Source of the DNA: Sporopachydermia quercuum
Taxonomy: Eukaryota > Ascomycota > Sporopachydermiomycetes > Sporopachydermiales > Sporopachydermiaceae
Assembly: GCA_001599295.1 (NCBI GenBank)
Contig: BCGN01000002.1
Coordinates: 1,426,001 to 1,490,000, forward strand
Reading direction: 5' to 3'
DNA: 64,000 nucleotides
Shown here: piece by piece, positions 1,176 through 56,244 of the stretch
How positions within the stretch are numbered: position 1 is the first letter of the stretch
How the letters are laid out: the number at the start of each line of letters is the position of its first letter
Made by a program: the position numbers and the translations under genes
The notes under the pieces: generated by a model
The model's input: the letters and a program-made list of their open reading frames with translations, nothing else
What the model was told of the DNA's origin: nothing
Databases searched by the model: none

Positions 1176-3530
1176 ATGTTTAAAGGTTCAGTCACCAAGA
1201 ACCTGAATCTGAACCTGATTTCCCCTATTAAATTCATCACTAGACATGCATCAACAGCTGTTCAAATCCACCCAGAGATCTCTCAAGCTGTTGCGGAGGA
1301 TAAACCAGTAGTAGCTCTGGAATCTACTATTATTACCCACGGTCTCCCTTTCCCTGAAAACTATGAGTTGGCAGTTTCTGTTGCAGACGTAATTCGCTCT
1401 CAAGGTGCAATTCCTTGTACTACTTCGTTTATCAACGGCGTACCGAAAGTAGGTCTTGATCAGAACGATCTACTCCTACTGACTGATAGAACCAGCAAGA
1501 ACTTTACACCGCCTTTGAAAGTATCAAGAAGAGACATTCCATATGTGATGAGTAGAAAGATAAACGGTGGAACAACCATAGCAGCTACAATGATTCTTGC
1601 CCATGAGGCTGGAATCAAAGTATTTGCTACTGGTGGTTTGGGAGGTGTCCATCGCGGAGCAGAAGTTTCTATGGATATTAGTGCAGATTTAGAAGAACTA
1701 GCTAAAACGCCAGTCGCTGTAGTATGTGCAGGTCCCAAAAGCGTTCTCGACATTGAGAAGACTATGGAATATTTAGAAACCAAAGGTGTTTATGTAGGGA
1801 CTATGGGTCCTGATGGAACAAATATTCCTGGGTTTTATTGTCGAGATTCCGGCGTGGCTTCACCTTTTAACTTTTCTTCATATAAGGATGCTGCTGAAGT
1901 TATTCATAATATAGACTTGATGAATCTGAAAACTGGATCATTATTTTGCGTCCCTCCGCCTCCTGATGTTGCCTTGAAATCAGATATGATTACTACTATT
2001 ATTAACCAAGCAAATATTGATGCTGAACAACTTGGTATCAAAGGCAAAGACTTGACACCTTTTCTACTAAATCAAATCTATAAATACACCCATGGAAAAA
2101 GTTCTAAATGCAATGTTGAATTTGTGAAAAATAATGCTAAGGTTGCATCAAAAATAAGCATTTCTCTCAGTCAATTGAGAGAACAAAAGGGACTTAAAAG
2201 GTCTATAACAATGATCGTGCCATCAAATGATACACAACTTAGGGATAAAAATATAGAAGAATGTCAGAGAAGTATAAATAGCACTATAAATTTTAGTGCC
2301 AAAGAGTCAGCGACTAGCAGTATTGATCCAATCAAAAATGACGAGATAAAGGTAAATACACACCCAGCGGTGGATGATCAATGCGACTCATTAGTTATTG
2401 GTTCCATTGCTGTGGATATTAATGGGTTAGCATCTTCTAAACTAATAGACAAATCCTCAAACCCTGGGATGATCACGGAAACTGTTGGGGGAGTNGGATA
2501 TAACATTGCTATAGCGGCTAAATTAGATGGATTGAATCCTCGCTTGGTTTCAACAATAGGCAATGATATATCAGGTCAATTGATACTCGACGAATTGAAA
2601 ATGGATGGTTTAGACTCTTCTGGTGTTCTGATTAGCTCTGGGGATAGGACTTCTAGATATATGGCTGTGCACGACAAGACAGGTAATTTGGTTACAGCTA
2701 TTGCTGATATGGCATCAATTGAAAATCTTAACGTGGAACATATAAACCGAGAGATTCTTAGAGCCAAACCAAAATGGATCTCTTTTGATGGTAATCTATC
2801 CACAAAGACAATGAACAATCTTATATCAATAGCAGGTTCTGAAGAGATACCGTTGTTTTATGAACCAACCTCAGATGCTAAAGCACCAAGAATAGCAGAC
2901 ACTGATTTAAGCGTATTTCCGAATAATCAAATTGCTATTGCCAGCCCGAGTATATCGGAACTGGAAGCAATGTTCTTTTCGTTCAAACGACAAGAGAAAT
3001 TTGATAATGATAACTGGTTTTCTGTAATTGATATTTTACAATTAGATAGTACTTTCAGAAACGAGATTACCCTCGTGGCTAGAAAGGTACCTCAATTGCA
3101 ACATATAGTTGACAAAGGAGTAGTTCAACAGGCATGTCAACTACTACCCTATATCCCAAATCTTATAATAAAAGACGGAGCTAATGGTTTGATTACCTTA
3201 CAAATAATGATTGATACTGATCATGTGGCAGTCACTTGCAAAGAAGTAAGTTCTGAAGTGCCCACAGTGATTTGTAAAGGAGTAACTCTTGAAAATGGTA
3301 CTAAAATTGGAGTGTTGTTCCAACACTTTCCTACAACACCTTTAGATAAAATAGTCAACGTAAATGGCGCAGGTGACACATTAGCAGGTGTTTTATTGAG
3401 TGAATGTATTTCTAATCCTCAATGGTTGGATAATGCAGGAAAAGTTAAGAAGAAAGTTATTGATAAAGCACAAACAGCAGCAGCTTTGGCCCTTTCGACG
3501 TTTGGATCGGCAAAGAAACATCATTTTTAG
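1176..3530 (+). CDS. Bifunctional pseudouridine-5'-phosphate glycosidase / PfkB-family kinase
   Basis: Single-exon 784-aa protein joining two enzymes of pseudouridine breakdown. Residues about 35-330 are the PsuG (indigoidine synthase A) glycosidase, with the family segment ALESTIITHGLP near the start. It splits pseudouridine 5'-phosphate into uracil and ribose 5-phosphate. Residues about 405-780 are a PfkB/ribokinase-type kinase with the C-terminal signature NGAGDTLAGV (catalytic Asp), expected to phosphorylate pseudouridine. This glycosidase-kinase order is known from fungal fusions. The N-terminus (MFKGSVTKNLNLNL then FITRHAST) is basic, hydroxylated and free of acidic residues, which suggests a mitochondrial presequence; that is inference. 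One N (about 2495) falls at the third position of a valine codon. The family assignment is secure; the kinase substrate is inferred from the fusion. Confidence 0.9.
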   Translation: MFKGSVTKNLNLNLISPIKFITRHASTAVQIHPEISQAVAEDKPVVALESTIITHGLPFPENYELAVSVADVIRSQGAIPCTTSFINGVPKVGLDQNDLLLLTDRTSKNFTPPLKVSRRDIPYVMSRKINGGTTIAATMILAHEAGIKVFATGGLGGVHRGAEVSMDISADLEELAKTPVAVVCAGPKSVLDIEKTMEYLETKGVYVGTMGPDGTNIPGFYCRDSGVASPFNFSSYKDAAEVIHNIDLMNLKTGSLFCVPPPPDVALKSDMITTIINQANIDAEQLGIKGKDLTPFLLNQIYKYTHGKSSKCNVEFVKNNAKVASKISISLSQLREQKGLKRSITMIVPSNDTQLRDKNIEECQRSINSTINFSAKESATSSIDPIKNDEIKVNTHPAVDDQCDSLVIGSIAVDINGLASSKLIDKSSNPGMITETVGGXGYNIAIAAKLDGLNPRLVSTIGNDISGQLILDELKMDGLDSSGVLISSGDRTSRYMAVHDKTGNLVTAIADMASIENLNVEHINREILRAKPKWISFDGNLSTKTMNNLISIAGSEEIPLFYEPTSDAKAPRIADTDLSVFPNNQIAIASPSISELEAMFFSFKRQEKFDNDNWFSVIDILQLDSTFRNEITLVARKVPQLQHIVDKGVVQQACQLLPYIPNLIIKDGANGLITLQIMIDTDHVAVTCKEVSSEVPTVICKGVTLENGTKIGVLFQHFPTTPLDKIVNVNGAGDTLAGVLLSECISNPQWLDNAGKVKKKVIDKAQTAAALALSTFGSAKKHHF

Positions 3531-12846: not shown

Positions 12847-13913
12847 ATGGTTTTGGAAGCTACTATGATTGTGTATGTGAATAATTAAGGAGGGGTTAGC
12901 ATGATTGAGATGGCCAGTATAGATTGATGGACATGCTGGTAAATAGTGAAATACTGGCATCAACTGGGTTTTGAGGTGACTCATGAGTATTCTTATTTAC
13001 TAACTAACATGAAATAATAGACTTGACAACTCAGAGTACATGAGAAATGGGGACTATTTAAATACGCGGTATGAAGCACAATTAGATGCGGTAGAAGTTA
13101 TATTCAATGCAAAGACTCTATCAAATCCAGAGAATACTGTTGGTGTTATGTCAATGGCAGGTGCTGGACCACAGGTGTTATCAACACTCACTTCTGACCA
13201 TGGAAGAATTTTAAGTGGTTTACACGAAACATCAATTGAAGGTAAAATTCATTTAACTACTGGTATTCAAGTTGCTGGGGTATGTTTTGTTTGCTATTTT
13301 ATGAACATTGATGGGAGATGAATTCCTTGATAAAGGAGTAGTTATCTTATAATTGGACGTCTGGATTACTAACGCAGCTGTTTCTCATTAGTTGGCATTA
13401 AAACATAGACAGAATAAGGTGCAGAACCAGAGAATAATTGTATTTGTAGGAAGTCCAATTGAAGAGAATGATAAGGACTTAGANAGATTAGCTAAAAAGA
13501 TGAAGAAGAACAATGTGGCGATTGATTTTATTAGTTTTGGAGAAGTTGAAGAAAACGCCGACAAGTTATCAAAATTCATAAACGTTGTTAATAGTAGAGA
13601 TAATAGTCATCTAGTGACAGTACCAGTTGGTCCTCAGCTGTTATATGAAGCTGTGAGTCAATCACCAATTATTAGAGAAGAAGGTGCTGAAGGTATGAGT
13701 GGAATGGGTGGCGAAGGAGATTTATTCGAATTTGGTGCTGATCCTAATTTAGATCCCGAACTTGCACTTGCTTTAAGATTATCATTAGAAGAAGAGAAGG
13801 CAAGACAAGCAAAACTGAACGAACAGCAAAAAGGCGAAAATTTAGAGAAAATTGATGAGGAAGGAACATCTGGTGATAAGATTGAAGACTCAAAGCCAAG
13901 TGAGGAGAAATAA
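12847..13913 (+). CDS. RPN10: 26S proteasome regulatory subunit Rpn10, three exons
   Basis: Exons 12847-12872, 13021-13279 and 13392-13913. Introns are 148 bp (donor GTATGT at 12873, branch TACTAAC 12998-13004) and 112 bp (donor GTATGT at 13280, branch TACTAAC 13367-13373). The spliced protein is 268 aa, the same length as yeast Rpn10. It begins [20 protein letters not shown], the N-terminus of the Rpn10 VWA domain, which docks on the 19S particle (residues 1 to about 190). A ubiquitin-interacting motif follows ([15 protein letters not shown], about residues 220-235), then an acidic/Lys tail. It is a ubiquitin receptor of the proteasome. Exon 1 carries only nine codons, so an ORF-only annotation would miss the true start. 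A CTG codon at 13638-13640 sits at the conserved leucine of the PQLLYE segment. Confidence 0.95.
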
Positions 13914-28611: not shown

Positions 28612-29852
28612 AAGTCACTGATATTTATTCTTAAGGTGTTTTGAACAACGAAAGAGCGTTACAGCGTTACAGCAAGCTTTGTAATTGAAAGCATGTTTCA
28701 AATTGTTTATCTGTTTGATCATTTATTTTGTTTATCTGATGAGAATGAAGTTTTTATCATTGTAATGCTTTCCCTCTTCCTTATGAATACCTTACCTACT
28801 CATTTCTCATTTACCTCACTTATTTAATATTTTGGTCTTTCTTCTGACTCCTTCTTGTACATACTAAATAGACACTATATGACAAATGCCTTCATTTATC
28901 TGCTTGGGAAGTAAACTTTTTTTCTTTCATTATGATCTGGCTTATTAAAGAGGTTTGGGATACTACGTACGTTTAATCATTGCATTTAATGAATTTTATC
29001 TTGTAATTTGTGTAGAGTTATTGATTTAGTACAACAGTCTGTCGTTTGAAATTGAATAACTGTAATGAATCCACGGATCAACCTCTAATTCTCATACTAA
29101 TCACATCACATTCAACATATGTTTTTGCAGAGCCCATACCAACTGCTACCCATTAACTAAACTTAGAAGATAATAAATGGCTAGCCAACTGTTAAGATAC
29201 TCATTTATCCATTCAATTCTATTGCCAATATATCAATGTAACAGCAAATTGAACCCTTTGGACAACACCTCAAATATGCAATCGCCTTCCCCTTTCCCAA
29301 CACTTTTCTCTCTTCCCCATTATATTGAAGATTTGCTTTCCAATTCTATTTCCGTTTCCATTTGCATATGAAAATGAAATTTGTATTAGTCAACAAAAAT
29401 CCTTTCACTTTCACTCTAATGGTCACACATATATTTCAGCCCCCATTATGGGACAAAAATATCATTAGCTTCATGTCATACAAAGAAAAAATATTTATCA
29501 TGGAGAACATATTCTAAAGAAGTATCAATGAAGGAAAGAGAATAGCCTACAAATTTGGTGGAACGTGGAAATCAGAATAAACAAGTATATGAAGCTATTG
29601 CCACGGTTGTTTTGAAGGAGCAACGAAGAGAAATTTGAAAGAATTAGGTATTCATAGTACTGTTGTTGACAGAAGGAAGGAGGGTAGTTAGCTATTTTCA
29701 GGTCAATTCAGTTCAGCTCAGTTTAGACCAAGTTTCAACTATCAACCTTTATTTCAGCTTAATAGAATTGGCGAAGTTAGTTGACGGAGATTTAGTTTTT
29801 TCTACATCAACGAAAAGAGTTGATCCATTTCGTTCGTGAGCATTTATACAAA
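28612..29852. other. Intergenic RIM2-FCF2
   Basis: About 1.2 kb with no supported gene. A 64-codon frame from an ATG at 29177 has no homology that I recognise and is probably chance. The frame leading into FCF2 from 29820 lacks an ATG until 29853. Confidence 0.5.
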
Positions 29853-30515
29853 ATGGCGCCAGCACTTGTGCGAAGTCCAGATCTAGACGACACTGACTTG
29901 GAGAAGCTGTTACAGCAAGCAAAGAAGAATCTACAATACGAGGAAGATGTGAAATCAAAGAAAACTGGTGAAAATAACGACGAAATTTCAAAAATAAAAA
30001 CCCAAGTGAAACATATACCAAAACTAAATGTTCCAGAATTATCAGAGAATAAACAGAAAACCAGGAGCAATAAGAAGAAGAGCGATAGCAGTCTACCTGA
30101 ACCAGCCAAAGTCGTGAACGAGAGTGCTGAGAGGAGGAAACGAAGAGAGGATGCGAAGTTAACAGCTGGTAAAGCATGGTTTGATATTCCTAAAGCTGAA
30201 ATGACTGACAGTTTAAAGAGAGATATTAAGCTCATAAAGATGAGAAATACTCTTGATCCTAAACATCATTATAAGAAAGCCGATGTATTAAATAGTGAAT
30301 ATTTACAAGTAGGAACTGTAATGGAAGGTAATACAGAATTTTTCTCAGCCAGGTTGACAAAGAAAGAAAGAAAGAAGACAATTGCTGATGAGATTTTGGA
30401 TGACATGAATTCGCAGAAATTTTTCAAAAGGAAGTATAAAGAGATTCAGGAGAAGAACGTCAGTGGGAGGAAAGCATTTTACAAGAAACTACAGGAACAA
30501 AGAAAGAAGTTTTGA
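29853..30515 (+). CDS. FCF2: Pre-rRNA processing factor Fcf2
   Basis: A 220-aa nucleolar protein (yeast Fcf2 is 217 aa) starting MAPALVRSPDLDD. The C-terminal half is the Fcf2/TdIF2-type domain: GKAWFDIPKAEMTDSLKRDI, then IKMRNTLDPKHHYKK, YLQVGTVMEG and FFSARLTKKERKKTIADEI, ending in KKLQEQRKKF. The N-terminal half is charged and probably disordered. Fcf2 acts in the SSU processome at the early cleavages A0-A2 that release 18S rRNA. The upstream TTG-started extension is rejected because the ATG at 29853 gives a family-like length. No intron is needed. Confidence 0.93.
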   Translation: MAPALVRSPDLDDTDLEKLLQQAKKNLQYEEDVKSKKTGENNDEISKIKTQVKHIPKLNVPELSENKQKTRSNKKKSDSSLPEPAKVVNESAERRKRREDAKLTAGKAWFDIPKAEMTDSLKRDIKLIKMRNTLDPKHHYKKADVLNSEYLQVGTVMEGNTEFFSARLTKKERKKTIADEILDDMNSQKFFKRKYKEIQEKNVSGRKAFYKKLQEQRKKF

Positions 30516-38053: not shown

Positions 38054-39640
38054 TTATCCTCTTAATCGAGTTCTTTCCTCTAACGATGCATCACCAGACT
38101 GCCCAACAATCGAGTCAGCGGGCCTCCAGATTTGAACTTCATTATCAGCACCCACACTACACATAGTCCATGGTTCTCTAGGATTCCAGTCAATATCCAT
38201 AACACCTTGACTATGACCACCATGAATAAACAATAATTCAGGAGGACCTTCTGATAAAGCTGATTCATCTGATACAGGATCATTAATTCTTGAAACATCC
38301 CATAACATAACTCTTCTATCAGATATAGAAGCACTTGCGAGTATACAAGAATTATGAGGACTCCACTCTAATGATGAAACAGAATCCTGATGTCCAACCA
38401 TTGAATGAATCTTCTGATCGAATCTTCGCAAATCCCATAGAGTAATTGATTTATCTTCTGAACCCGTAGCAAACAAATACTCGTTGAATGGATTAAAGGA
38501 AACTGCATTAATGGGCTTTTTATGACCATCAAGATTGATCTGCGTGCTATCTGCTTGCAGACGAATATCATGAGACCTAATTGAACAGTCGTCTGCGACG
38601 CTAACAAACAAAGAATCATGACTTCGAAACCATTGAATATCGTTGACCTGTGCATTGTGTCCTTTAAACACTCTTGATGGGCCAATTATAGATGTGTTTT
38701 CTCTCCACTGTTTGATGTTCCATAAAGCAATTGTAGTATCTTCAGATCCCGTCAAAAGACTTCCTTCTTGCTGTAAATTCCACGAAATACCAAAGGTATC
38801 ACCGTGATGATGTTTCAATGTTAATTCTGGTTTCCCTTTAGGATTAGGAATACTAGGGTGTTTCGTTCTATCATATATATATGTCACACCATTGAGACCG
38901 CATGTTCCTATAATATCAGGCTTTTGGGGCATATACCTTGCTCTATTAACTTCTCCTTTATCATGTATAATCCTTTGAATGATTCTCAAATTACTTTTCT
39001 GTGTTGGATTTATACCAAACTCATTCTTATCATTATCAAATGATTTCAAATCTGGCATCTGAGACCCCAATTGTGGGAGATCTATATCACCAATCTGTAA
39101 GTACTCAGATGCTGCACCGGATGTATATGAACCTAATAACAATCTATATTTTGCATAATTGGTTGATGGATCCCTGTATTTATCATTCATACCGTTAGTC
39201 GGACATTAAGAAATGTAGATAACTTATCGATTCAGCATCCAGAAAAACACTTACACTTCGACATCTGGAAACCATTGGACTGTTAAAGAAGGCCATAGTA
39301 ATGTAGATACTATACACATATCATAAAGATATGNGGCATTTTTTTTCCAGATTCTATGCTCTATTAGGCCGTTTTAATATGTTAGTATTTAATCAATAAA
39401 TTCTGATAATAGAACTATAATCCATATCACTAATGTACAGATTCTGATAACTTCTTTAATGCTTACCTTTGCTAATCTCAGCTATATCAACTCGAAGGAC
39501 AGTTGTGTTAGTTTCAATTACCCATTTTGATATATAGTATTTTGAAATATAGTCCAGTTGCTATCAACCTTCAACTTCAGCCTATTCTCAACTACCTTAT
39601 GTCACCAAATTCACATACCATCATCAAAGTCGTCCCCCAT
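38054..39640 (-). CDS. MSI1: CAF-1 subunit Msi1 (RBBP4/7-like WD40), four exons with a microexon
   Basis: Exons 39640-39619, 39481-39467 (15 nt), 39360-39255 and 39173-38054; 420 aa (yeast Msi1 is 422). Introns are 137 bp (donor GTATGT, branch AACTAAC), 106 bp (donor GTAAGC, branch TACTAAC 39387-39381) and 81 bp (donor GTAAGT, branch GACTAAC). The junctions give MGDDFDD-AEISK-EHRIWKKNAPYLYD..., the H4-binding N-terminal helix of RBBP4/7 proteins, then LLWPSLTVQWFPDVE-VDPSTNYAKYRLLLG. Seven WD repeats follow, with VNRARYMPQKPDIIGT and ELLFIHGGH as in Msi1. The protein is the histone chaperone subunit p48 of chromatin assembly factor 1. Msi1 is preferred to its paralogue Hat2 because the propeller (RIIQRIIHDKGEVNRARYMP, INAVSFNPFNEYLFATGSED) reads closer to Msi1. 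The apparent ATG at 39190 lies inside intron 3. An N at 39334 is in exon 3. Confidence 0.88.
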
Positions 39641-50771: not shown

Positions 50772-53700
50772 ATGGCTTGCCTCAAAGCAACTTCCTCTGT
50801 AAAATTTGGCAGATTTGTCGTTGGAAGATTAAACCCAGCCAAATGTGTCCAGAATCACCCCCGGGAGACCATTAGAGGGATTGTGTCGCAGGGGCGTTTC
50901 TTCTCCATGATAAGAATTGGCGGTTCATCAACAGACTTAAGGACGGTGATGAAAAGTAGTAGGAATGGAGAAAAACTAGGAATTAGAGGAAATCGTGTAG
51001 GAATACTATCGCAATTGAATCATTTAAAAGCTATTAGAATGTGCTCATCTTGCTCTGGATTGGGAGTTACAAAGTAAGTGCTATAAAGGACTAATTTGAT
51101 GCGTACATGGTAAGAGGTAGATTACTTACAATAGGTAATAAATGAATGAATGTCTAAATGAATGGAATTGCTCATTTGTTTCAACTTTAGTTCTGATGCA
51201 GTGATATAAATAGACTGCTTGAATAGATTGCTAGAATTGATAGAATAGCCTGAGCGTTATACTAAGTGGTTATTGCATTTTGATACAATGCTTGCAAGTC
51301 CAAAGCTCTTTTTTGGCGCTTTGGCCATTGCGATCACATCATTGGCAACATTCCCAATACAAAATATGTTGTATCCTTATAAAATACATAACAGCTTAAT
51401 AAGCGCAGGAAATGCTGCTTATTCATATCGAATCTCCTATGGAGCGTTTGATTACAACTCATTGTTTGTTATACCAACAGTAACTGAACCTATACTTACC
51501 TCAATCAAATTATGGATTCTTTGGTCGATTATACTTTTCTTCCTACATTATAAGGACCAGTTACTAACGTTCTTTGTTTAGCGTCCCTCAAAGGGAGATT
51601 TTACCTACCCATGTCAAACCAATTGACTATGATTTAACATTAGAACCAAACTTCAGTGATTTCACCTTCAAAGGTGACTTGACAATTGATTTAGAAGTAA
51701 AGGAATCTAAGGAAACCATCACTTTAAACTCTTTAGAAATTGATGTTCATACTGCTTCAGTTGTCAGTGACAGTGTCGAACAAAAGGCCACTGATATTTC
51801 ATACGATGAAGAACTACAAACTGTCACTTTCAAGTTTGATAAGCCATTGACAGTTGGGGCCAAGACCGCTTTATCTTTAACTTTCACTGGTCAATTAAAC
51901 GATAAAATGNCAGGTTTCTACAGAAGTACTTACACTGACGCCAATGGCGAAACTAAGTATTTGGCTACCACTCAAATGGAACCAACTGATTGTAGAAGAG
52001 CTTTCCCATCTTTTGATGAACCAGCAGTGAAAGCTCATTTCTCTATTACTCTTATCGCTGATAAGAATTTGACCTGCTTATCCAATATGGATGTTAAAGA
52101 GACCAAGGAGTTAGATAATGACAGAAAAGCTGTTGTATTTAATCAAACACCTTTGATGTCTACTTATTTGGTTGCTTTCATTATTGGTGATTTGAAATAT
52201 GTTGAAACAAATGAATTCCGAATCCCTATCAGAGTTTACGCTACTCCTGGTCTTGAAAAACAAGGTAAATTTTCTGTTGAATTGGCAGCTAAGACTCTAG
52301 ATTTCTTTGAAAAGACTTTTGATATTCCATTTCCTTTACCAAAGATGGATATGGTGGCCATTCATGACTTTTCGGCCGGCGCCATGGANAACTGGGGTTT
52401 GATTACTTACAGAGTTGTTGATTTACTTTTTGATGAAGAACATGCTTCTCTATCTACTAAGCAAAGAGTTGCTGAAGTTGTTCAACACGAATTAGCTCAT
52501 CAATGGTTNGGTAATTTGGTTACAATGGACTGGTGGGAAGGTCTTTGGCTCAATGAAGGTTTTGCTACTTGGATGTCGTGGTTCTCTTGTAACGAATTCT
52601 ATCCTGACTGGAAAGTTTGGGAACAATATGTTACTGATAATTTACAATCAGCATTGTCACTCGATGGTTTGAGATCTTCTCATCCTATTGAAGTTCCTGT
52701 TAAAAAAGCCGATGAAATCAATCAAATCTTCGATGCTATTTCATATTCCAAGGGTTCTGCTGTGTTAAAGATGATCTCTGAATATTTAGGTGAAGAAGTG
52801 TTTATTAAAGGTGTTTCCAACTACTTGAAGAAACATTCTTATGGAAATACTCAAACTGGCGATCTTTGGGCTGCTTTAGCTGAAGCCTCTGGTAAAGATA
52901 TTGTTAAAGTTATGGACATTTGGACCAAAAAGGTTGGCTATCCAGTTGTAAGTGTTACTGAAAATCCTGACTCCAATGAAATTGTTGTTAAGCAAAACAG
53001 ATATCTTACTACTGGTGATGTTAAGCCGGAAGAAGATGAAACCATCTATCCTGTTTTCCTAGGATTGAAAACAGCTGATGGTGTCGATGAATCTGTTGTT
53101 TTAGATAAGAGAGAATCCACATACAAACTGAAGGATTTAGATTTTTACAAGATCAATTCTGATCATGCTGGTATCTATCGTACTTCATACCCCAAAGAAA
53201 GATGGGAAAGATTATCTGAAGCTGGTGTTAAGGGCTTATTATCTGTTGAAGACAGAGCTGGTCTTGTTGCTGATATTGGTGCCCTTTCTGTTTCTGGATA
53301 TCAACCCACAGTCAATTTACTATCCCTTGTCTCTCAATGGAAGTCAGAATCACAATTTGTTGTTTGGGACGAAATCACCTCCAGAATTGGTGCTATTAAG
53401 ACTGCTTGGTTATTTGAAGAAGAATCGGTTAAAACTGGGTTAAAGAAGTTCACCCGCGATCTTGTCATCGATAAGGCGAAATCGGTTGGCTGGGATTTCA
53501 AACCAGATGATTCTTTCTTAGATCAACAGTTAAAATCTCTGTTATTTGGCGCTACCGTGGGCTCAGAAGATGAGGAGTTCGTTAAGATTGCTATTGACCA
53601 GTTTAATAAGTACATCGCTGGTGATAAGAAGGCTATTCATCCTAATGTAAGAGGAACTGTTTTTGCTACTGCTATTAAGTATGGAGGAGTCAAAGAATGG

Positions 53701-54372: not shown

Positions 54373-56244
54373 CTATTTCATAAAATAGTTACGTAAAACA
54401 ATTGCTTTTGAATATATGTCAGCAACAACCGCATCATTGATCATATCAGTATTCACACCAAATGCTGAAATTAAGTATCCACCACAGATTTTATCAACAT
54501 TGACGACATCGGTATTACTATCATTATCATTATAATTAACATTCTCAATGGTATTCTCAACAGATTTATCACTGTTACCACTGTTATCACTGTTATCATT
54601 CCTATCATTGTCATTATCAATATTGTTATTATCATCTTTCTTAGAGCTATTAGAACTCTTCTTTATAGCAAGTTCAATACGATCTCTATGAAAAGGCATA
54701 CAAGTTCCGGAGCGGAATTTGTTAGTCTTACTAGAATCATTGTATGTAATTCCCAAAGGAGAATTGAACGATTTATAATGAATTTTTGGTTCAAATTTCA
54801 AGCCATCAAGGGGAAATCCAGATGAACCTAATAATCTTGTTTTAATACTATCATCACATCTCTTCGTGAGCTCATTTTTGTATTCGAAGCTATCATAATC
54901 AATCTTACTCTGACCTGTGGAATTAGTTAAGTATTTATATGGTATAGAATACTTCTCAGTTACTCTGATTTCCATAATGTAAACAAAATCCAGCTCAAGA
55001 TTGGTAGCAACATAATCACATAAAGCATTAGCAGCATATCTTATATCATGTTTCTCCAGTAAGATGTGTTCTAATGCTGTAGCCCTGGAATAAAATGCTT
55101 CCGATTCTTCTTTGCCAAACACAAGGGTATCATTTTGGGTATATGAACTTCCTGGTCTGGTATTACCAAATGCAGGTACCTTCTTACCTGGTCTAACGCT
55201 GGTAGCTCTNCCGATAGTTTTGATAAGAGGAGTATTACCTTCATGTTTGGATGTAGCGGAGCCTATTCTATCGATGTTTGTTTCTTCTACAATATCCATA
55301 ATTTCTTGGGCATATTGCTGCATATCTTTAATCATCTCNTCACAATTCTTATTTCTCTCGTGCCTGTCAAAAAGAGCCAATACTCCAATACAACTTGAGC
55401 TCTAATTATGATAATTATGATAAGGAGAAATCGTTAGTTGATTAGGTTTAGATTATAAGATACTCTTTCAGATCTCAAACAATGCTGTGGATGATAAACA
55501 ACCATTTCAATCAAACATACCTTTGTTATCAAAGGAACCCCACAGTAAAAAGTAACAAACAATGAACCTGTAACCAATGGGTTCTTTTTGAATCTCCAGT
55601 CCTTTGCTGTATTTTTTATAAGCATGTAATCTTTTGATAGTATACAGTGAGCATCTAATGAAGCCATTCTAGTACATTTCGTAAAAACGGTTGTTGGTAA
55701 GACTTTGATATTCAATTGTTGAGTTTGAGTGATCAAAGAAATGTTTGCTCCAGCCACGCCATACTTCAAAATCAACTTTCTAACGATACTTGCAAAATGA
55801 TTATCATGATACCTCCATACTTCTTCTGTGAGATAATGTTGAACGTTCTANTAACAATAAGTTAATGACAAAGAGATCCTTGAAGGGAAGAAAAAAAGCG
55901 AAAAATAGCGAAGCTTCACATAAATTATACGCATCAACACTCTCATGTTATAACATCACATACCTTCAAACGAATATATTCATCACAGCTTGATGGTGCC
56001 ATCATCAATCCCTCACAATCACAATTCTTTGGCATAGGAACCTCTGACAAGTTTTTCTTTCTCTGTAAACATGAATTGTTAGAGTACATATATATTAGTG
56101 GGCCTATGCGCAAATGGTGCAACACTATACCGAAGAATACCCATCAGTAAAATGAGCCCAGTTAGGTTCAATATTCTTGAGCAATACTGAGGGATCATGT
56201 TTTCTAATCTTTAAGTCATTAGAACTATCCTTTGATCTGCTCAT
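54373..56244 (-). CDS. GAF-domain protein, four exons, uncharacterised
   Basis: Exons 56244-56131, 56062-55964, 55847-55521 and 55401-54373, joined in phase 0; 522 aa. Introns are 68 bp (donor GTATAG, branch CTCTAAC), 116 bp (donor GTATGT) and 119 bp (donor GTATGT, branch AACTAAC). Residues about 70-205 form a GAF-like fold: DEYIRLK-NVQHYLTEEVWRY, then GVAGANISLITQTQQLNIKV, LDAHCILSKDYMLIKNTAKDWRFKKNPLV, FYCGVPLIT and SSSCIGVLALFDR. The C-terminal part repeats some of this style (ALCDYVATNLELDFVYIMEIRV ... CGGYLISAFGVN), with an Asn/Asp/Ser tract of ~50 residues inserted, so a second degenerate GAF is possible. GAF domains bind small ligands or mediate dimers. Partner and ligand are unknown. 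The fold call is by eye; the exon joins are well supported by phase. Confidence 0.75.

What the first reader, a model, noticed from the sequence alone, without database searches (positions are those of the whole stretch)
39467..39481. A 15-nt microexon in MSI1
The histone-binding N-terminal helix of Msi1 can only be rebuilt by including a 15-nt exon (five codons' worth, phases 1 and 1) flanked by ATAG and GTAAGC, between introns of 137 and 106 bp. With it the protein reads FDD-AEISK-EHRIWKKN, like RBBP4 (FDDA...EEYKIWKKN). Exon length is a multiple of three, so skipping would keep the frame and remove five residues of the H4-contacting helix: a possible natural switch.
Basis: partly seen in the sequence, partly recalled or inferred. 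Interest (0 to 1): 0.75.

Follow-up and report, generated by a model that had tools for sequence, protein, structure and literature searches.

The report
Likely microexon in yeast histone-chaperone gene
A yeast gene for a histone-binding protein probably contains a tiny 15-base exon near its start; leaving it out would still give an in-frame protein, so it looks like an unusual but not unprecedented gene structure rather than a demonstrated switch.

Summary
The sequence is as described: minus strand 39481-39467 (15 nt) lies between intron-like stretches of 137 and 106 bp in an RBBP4/Mis16/Hat2-family gene. I judge a real microexon more likely than a decoy (0.75). A comparable in-frame cassette arises in 0.16-0.29% of shuffles of the 258-bp interval. 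Its peptide fits RBBP4/Mis16 better than 98-99% of random in-frame inserts. The helix does not need the 15 nt: one 258-bp intron is also in frame and scores nearly the same. The five residues lie upstream of the H4-contact residues reported for RbAp46 helix 1 (Trp23, Phe29, Leu30). The microexon's branch point and donor are weak compared with 15 other introns, so skipping is plausible. A 24-nt version from a GAG acceptor is also in frame. No transcript or related genome could be examined. Precedents exist: a 4-nt exon and a mostly skipped in-frame 39-nt exon in Yarrowia lipolytica. It is a new member of a known kind, of modest interest.

The parts
39619..39640 (-). exon 1 (22 nt), ATGGGGGACGACTTTGATGATG, MGDDFDD + 1 nt
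   Evidence: within 700 nt of exon 2 the only other phase-1, stop-free ATG-to-donor exons found were from 40271 and 40184, both with a GTGCGC donor
39482..39618 (-). intron 1 (137 bp): GTATGT ... AAACTAAC (branch A about 39508) ... ATAG
   Evidence: branch score 7.8 is below all 15 control introns, branch-to-acceptor distance 26 is longer than in 14 of 15
39467..39481 (-). proposed 15-nt microexon, phases 1 and 1, contributes AEISK
39482..39490 (-). optional 9-nt extension of exon 2 if the upstream GAG acceptor is used (24-nt exon, adds VDI); in frame
   Evidence: disfavoured because 15 of 15 control introns end in YAG
39361..39466 (-). intron 2 (106 bp): GTAAGC ... ATACTAAC (branch A about 39382) ... 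ATAG
   Evidence: donor score 6.6, lower than 14 of 15 controls
39255..39360 (-). exon 3 (106 nt), EHRIWKKNAXYLYD...DVEV, carries the start of the CAF1C_H4-bd domain; one N at 39334
39174..39254 (-). intron 3 (81 bp): GTAAGT ... CGACTAAC ... ACAG
38054..39173 (-). exon 4 with the WD40 beta-propeller, stop at 38054-38056

Best explanation
The gene is an RBBP4/Mis16/Hat2-family histone chaperone gene of a fungus, probably an ascomycete yeast. Its exon 2 is a 15-nt microexon recognised by ordinary intron definition: two short introns, each with its own donor, CTAAC branch point and TAG acceptor. Inclusion adds AEISK and gives the N-terminal helix roughly the length seen in RbAp46. Because both junctions are phase 1, splicing exon 1 directly to exon 3 also gives an in-frame protein whose helix is about one and a half turns shorter at its N-terminal end. 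Shown: sequence, frame, splice signals, family. Inferred: that the 15 nt are spliced in, that inclusion is the main form with some skipping because the microexon's own signals are weak, and that both forms still bind H4.
For: A complete inner acceptor and donor in frame, expected in 0.16% (at most 15 nt) to 0.29% (at most 60 nt) of shuffles. No such cassette, in any frame, in 15 control introns, though only six of these are 130 bp or longer, so most have little room for one. Ten of the 15 control junctions lie inside a Pfam match of the spliced protein. Introns of 137, 106 and 81 bp fall among the control lengths (77-508, median 116), whereas 258 would be third longest of 16. Random in-frame 15-mers reach the observed summed alignment score to RBBP4 and two Mis16 in 40 of 5000 (intergenic pool) and 79 of 5000 (random bases). 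Ile10, supplied by the microexon, is invariant with RBBP4 and Mis16 in a three-row alignment. RbAp46 helix 1 starts at Asp9, which corresponds to D3 of the inclusion form.
Against: The microexon's own signals are weak: the intron 1 branch is below all 15 controls, its distance to the acceptor (26) is longer than in 14 of 15, and the GTAAGC donor is below 14 of 15; no control has C at +6. Protein support is modest: the skip form scores slightly better in Pfam and against Hat2, and 22 of 120 orderings of the same five residues score as high. The donor set was relaxed to include GTAAGC; under the strict set no cassette is found. No relative was found in viral contigs or genome contigs, so conservation is untested.
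Confidence: 0.75

Rival explanations
1. There is one 258-bp intron. Exon 1 joins exon 3 directly (MGDDFDDEHRIWKKN) and the inner AG/GT pair is a decoy.
For: In frame without stops. Outer donor 8.6 and outer branch 10.8 score higher than the inner donor 6.6 and inner branch 7.8. CAF1C_H4-bd 87.3 vs 86.2 bits and Hat2 56.1 vs 54.9 favour it slightly. Introns of 223, 369 and 508 bp exist in the window.
Against: A cassette this complete is expected in only 0.16-0.29% of shuffles, and its peptide fits the family better than 98-99% of random inserts.
Confidence: 0.17
2. Exon 2 is 24 nt (39490-39467), spliced at the upstream GAG; the protein reads FDDVDIAEISKEHRIWKKN.
For: In frame, same branch point at a more typical distance of 17 nt. 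phmmer is 0.7-1.7 bits above the 15-nt form for single RBBP4, p55 and Mis16 chains and level for 9koh and RBBP7 (vs 18).
Against: All 15 control introns end in TAG or CAG; GAG acceptors are generally poor (general knowledge). It scores 0.3 and 0.5 bits lower for Hat2 and Prw1 (vs 18).
Confidence: 0.06
3. The microexon is a regulated switch that tunes histone H4 binding. This could hold together with the best explanation.
For: 3n length, phase 1/1, weak inner sites; a mostly skipped in-frame exon 2 is known in Y. lipolytica.
Against: The affected residues are upstream of the reported helix-1 contacts with H4 and of Mis16 L32/W33. Nothing here shows regulation, and exon skipping was found in only four genes of Y. 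lipolytica.
Confidence: 0.06

Closest known systems
Yarrowia lipolytica YALI0B15598g exon 2 (39 nt) and YALI0E34170g (4-nt exon), PMC2911113
   Same: Yeast gene with a short internal exon; in YALI0B15598g exon 2 is 3n long, near the N terminus, skippable in frame (502 vs 489 aa) and flanked by a suboptimal intron-1 branch point and intron-2 donor (passages seen)
   Different: Other genes; cDNA evidence exists there and none here; the branch point and donor here keep CTAAC and GTAAG, unlike those quoted (TGCTCAC, GTCAGC)
Trichoderma virens Xlr2 20-nt microexon, PMC11121469
   Same: Very short fungal exon in the N-terminal coding part, missed by the annotated gene model (passages seen)
   Different: 20 nt is not a multiple of 3; glucose-dependent inclusion was measured there; it encodes part of a DNA-binding domain
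RbAp46/RBBP7, RBBP4, Mis16, Hat2
   Same: Same protein family: CAF1C_H4-bd domain and WD40 propeller; 43-45% identity to the RBBP4 and Mis16 (4xyh) stretches aligned
   Different: Six residues fewer than RbAp46 before the shared Trp in the inclusion form, eleven fewer in the skip form (Trp17 or Trp12 vs Trp23). Intron structure of the relatives was not examined

Membership tests
RBBP4/Mis16/Hat2 histone chaperones | CAF1C_H4-bd domain (PF12265) at the N terminus | tested here: met
   86.2 bits, cutoff 22.7
RBBP4/Mis16/Hat2 histone chaperones | WD40 propeller closest to RBBP4/Mis16 | tested here: met
   phmmer 314-320 bits to RBBP4 and Mis16 chains, 198 to Hat2 (4psw); PDB sequences only
RBBP4/Mis16/Hat2 histone chaperones | GPPEL segment that ends the PP loop | tested here: met
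   EGPPELLFIHGGH aligned with RBBP4 DGPPELLFIHGGH
RBBP4/Mis16/Hat2 histone chaperones | binds histone H4 helix 1 | not testable with these tools
   needs a binding assay
microexon (internal exon of about 30 nt or less) | length and splice signals on both sides | tested here: met
   15 nt; own branch, TAG acceptor and GTAAGC donor; donor outside the strict GTRWGT set
microexon (internal exon of about 30 nt or less) | present in spliced mRNA | not testable with these tools
   no transcript data; no genome of the organism is held
microexon (internal exon of about 30 nt or less) | conserved in relatives | tested here: inconclusive
   no related locus in viral contigs or genome contigs; these are not eukaryote collections
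alternative (switch) microexon | skipping keeps the frame | tested here: met
alternative (switch) microexon | inclusion varies with condition | not testable with these tools
   needs RNA-seq

The most novel reading that the evidence does not exclude
One primary transcript of a yeast RBBP4-type gene gives up to three in-frame isoforms differing by 0, 5 or 8 residues at the N-terminal end of helix 1, and condition-dependent choice among them shifts which complexes (CAF-1, Hat1, deacetylase or centromere loading) the chaperone joins, rather than its H4 contact.
Probability: 0.07. Interest if true: 0.6.

Novelty: new member of a known kind. Interest (0 to 1): 0.27.

Why it matters
If spliced as proposed, it adds a very short exon to those described in yeasts, in a highly conserved chromatin gene where automatic annotation could easily miss it. 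It also shows that a family profile cannot settle such cases, because the exon lies just outside the Pfam domain and both splice forms score alike. A functional switch would matter more, but the residues concerned are upstream of the reported helix-1 contacts with H4.

Tried and rejected
A longer exon 2 from other acceptors: of nine AG positions that could start an exon 2 ending at 39467, only 39490 (GAG, 24 nt) and 39481 (15 nt) are in frame and open. An unspliced N terminus was rejected: reading from exon 1, or through either inner intron next to exon 2, meets in-frame stops, and the open stretch just before exon 2 has no ATG in frame. Another first exon: within 700 nt of exon 2 and for the donor pattern used, besides 39640 only two ATGs (40271, 40184) sharing a GTGCGC donor fit phase 1. 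Homologous loci: none found in viral contigs or genome contigs. tRNA and Rfam scans of the window gave nothing. NCBIfam gave nothing for the N-terminal piece. One minimum-energy fold of the interval was made, without control, and no argument was drawn from it. Paper searches for microexons or short exons in yeast, fungi and RBBP4 showed no title or abstract start describing this exon; three listings were capped (25 of 51, 8 of 28, 15 of 1,734), and only the passages cited were read. No structure prediction was made, because a spliced protein is not letter-for-letter window DNA.

Full report
What is there. The minus strand from 39640 to 38054 encodes an RBBP4/Mis16/Hat2-family protein. Exon 4 matches PDB chains of RBBP4 and Mis16 with 314-320 bits and Hat2 (4psw) with 198. 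Rebuilt with four exons of 22, 15, 106 and 1120 nt the protein has 420 residues; without the 15-nt exon it has 415, still in frame. No genome of the organism is held to look for a second paralogue. That this is an ascomycete yeast is an inference from gene content, base composition and splice signals. Species labels of PDB chains are recalled.

Does the protein need the microexon? No. The Pfam domain CAF1C_H4-bd begins at or just beside exon 3 and scores 86.2 bits with the exon, 87.3 without and 85.9 from EHRI onward. In N-terminal phmmer searches of the PDB, inclusion raises the score by 3.4 bits for RBBP4 (2xu7), about 3 for RBBP7, 4.8 for p55 (2xyi), 0.8 and 1.7 for the two Mis16 and 0.7 for Prw1, and lowers it by 1.2 for Hat2. 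The reason is visible in the sequence: FDDEHRIW (skip) and ISKEHRIW (include) both put a hydrophobic residue seven places before the Trp.

Does the DNA support it? I compiled 15 control introns of the window outside this gene: RPN10 x2, RPS9, MED8 x2, WBP11-like x2, APE2-like, GPI2, IML1, an unassigned gene x2, an INO4-type HLH gene x2 and an NBL1-like gene. After splicing, Pfam matches cover ten of the 15 junctions (RPN10 two, MED8 two, WBP11-like two, INO4-type two, IML1, GPI2). RPS9, NBL1-like, the unassigned gene (no Pfam match) and APE2-like (not submitted) rest on frame and reading alone. Gene names that Pfam does not give are recalled. The 15 donors are GTAAGT (8), GTATGT (6) and GTGAGT (1). 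All have a CTAAC (13) or TTAAC (2) branch 11-32 nt before the acceptor, and all end in TAG (11) or CAG (4). Most of these introns were found through scans that asked for such motifs, so their uniformity is partly selection.

With the relaxed donor set the 258-bp interval contains one in-frame inner cassette, the 15-nt exon, plus a 5-nt out-of-frame variant. None of the 15 control introns, nor intron 3 of the gene, contains a cassette in any frame, but only six controls are 130 bp or longer. In 20,000 dinucleotide shuffles of the interval (first 6 and last 30 bases kept), 31 held an in-frame, stop-free cassette of at most 15 nt, 42 of at most 30 nt and 57 of at most 60 nt. In 11,736 overlapping 258-nt stretches that I had marked as non-coding (approximate mask), 0 held one of at most 15 nt and about 0.37% one of at most 30 nt. 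The caveat is that the donor set had to include GTAAGC, which no control intron uses; with the strict set the observed cassette drops out.

Does the peptide fit? Inserting random in-frame, stop-free 15-mers between exons 1 and 3 reached the observed summed BLOSUM62 score to RBBP4 and two Mis16 in 40 of 5000 (intergenic pool) and 79 of 5000 (random bases); 10-13% improve on the skip form at all. Only three homologues were used and two are close, so this is moderate evidence. Among all 120 orders of the same five residues, 22 score as high. Inclusion brings in Ile10, invariant in the three-row alignment. It also gives the helix about the length of RbAp46 helix 1, which starts at Asp9, the place of D3 here when counted from the shared Trp.

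My estimate. Taking a prior of about one in a hundred introns for hiding a very short exon (a guess), the splice-signal and peptide evidence together make the microexon likely, and I put it at about 0.75. This is a judgement, not a computed posterior.

Skipping. On matrices built from the 15 controls, the two signals that define the microexon are weak: the intron 1 branch (AAACTAAC, 7.8) is below all 15 controls and the intron 2 donor (AAG|GTAAGC, 6.6) below 14 of 15. The outer donor (8.6) and the intron 3 donor (9.2) are also below 14 of 15, so all three donors of this gene score low; the outer branch (10.8) is ordinary. The outer pair still beats the inner pair by 2.0 and 3.0 units. In Yarrowia lipolytica an in-frame 39-nt exon 2 is skipped in 46 cDNAs and included in 2, which the authors connect with a suboptimal intron 1 branch and intron 2 donor (PMC2911113, passages read). 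The same paper reports a four-nucleotide exon supported by two cDNAs and mostly short internal exons in multi-intronic genes. Partial skipping here is thus plausible, but nothing shows that it is regulated.

Would skipping change H4 binding? In RbAp46, helix 1 runs from Asp9 to Pro28. H4 packs against Phe29, Leu30, Phe367, Ile368 and Ile407, Trp23 lies in the pocket, and PP-loop and C-terminal residues make the polar contacts (PMC2572730, 12 passages read, supplementary figures not seen). The microexon residues A8-K12 fall at RbAp46 14-18; Trp17, Tyr23 and Leu24, at the places of Trp23, Phe29 and Leu30, are in exon 3. In Mis16, a truncation that removes L32 leaves substantial residual Mis19 binding, and one that removes L32 and W33 reduces it considerably (PMC6677171, passages read, which cites An et al. 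2018). Both places are encoded by exon 3 here. Skipping should shorten the far end of the helix and leave the reported contacts intact; this is inference.

Rivals. A single 258-bp intron remains possible (0.17), as does a 24-nt exon from the GAG at 39490 (0.06). The latter scores 0.7-1.7 bits above the 15-nt form for single RBBP4, p55 and Mis16 chains, is level for 9koh and RBBP7 and is 0.3-0.5 lower for Hat2 and Prw1, but it would be the only non-YAG acceptor among the introns examined. In its favour, its branch distance (17) is nearer the control median (16) than the 26 of the 15-nt form.

Novelty. Short yeast exons and skippable in-frame exons are known, as is a switch-like 20-nt microexon in Trichoderma (PMC11121469, passages read). 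None of the titles and abstract starts listed by my searches (some capped) described one in an RBBP4-family gene of a yeast; that is a statement about those listings only.

Noticed in passing
51288-51581 (+): Inside the 508-bp APE2-like intron lies a 97-codon ATG-started ORF with many hydrophobic residues whose stop codon TAG is the intron's acceptor; it could be an alternative first exon or chance.
   Followed up: no
whole window, e.g. 39334, 40152, 40159: 59 single N positions scattered through 64 kb, which may be masked ambiguity codes of a heterozygous diploid; one falls in MSI1 exon 3.
   Followed up: no
31720-31662 (-): MED8 has a 59-nt internal exon between two introns, another short internal exon in the window.
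   Followed up: partly
13280-13391 (+): RPN10 intron 2 passes over a CAG close behind its branch point and uses the TAG 19 nt from the branch A; the NBL1-like intron (11537-11438) passes over a close TAG in the same way.
   Followed up: partly
14807-14783 (-): First intron of the INO4-type HLH gene contains a run of 25 T.
   Followed up: no
1176-3530 (+): Single ORF fusing an indigoidine synthase A-like domain and a PfkB kinase domain, as in bifunctional pseudouridine-metabolising proteins (recalled).
   Followed up: no
54373-56040 (-): Intron-containing gene without a Pfam match for the 178-aa piece tested.
   Followed up: partly
29749-30515: Three overlapping ORFs of 142, 142 and 231 codons on both strands; which, if any, is coding was not examined.
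   Followed up: no
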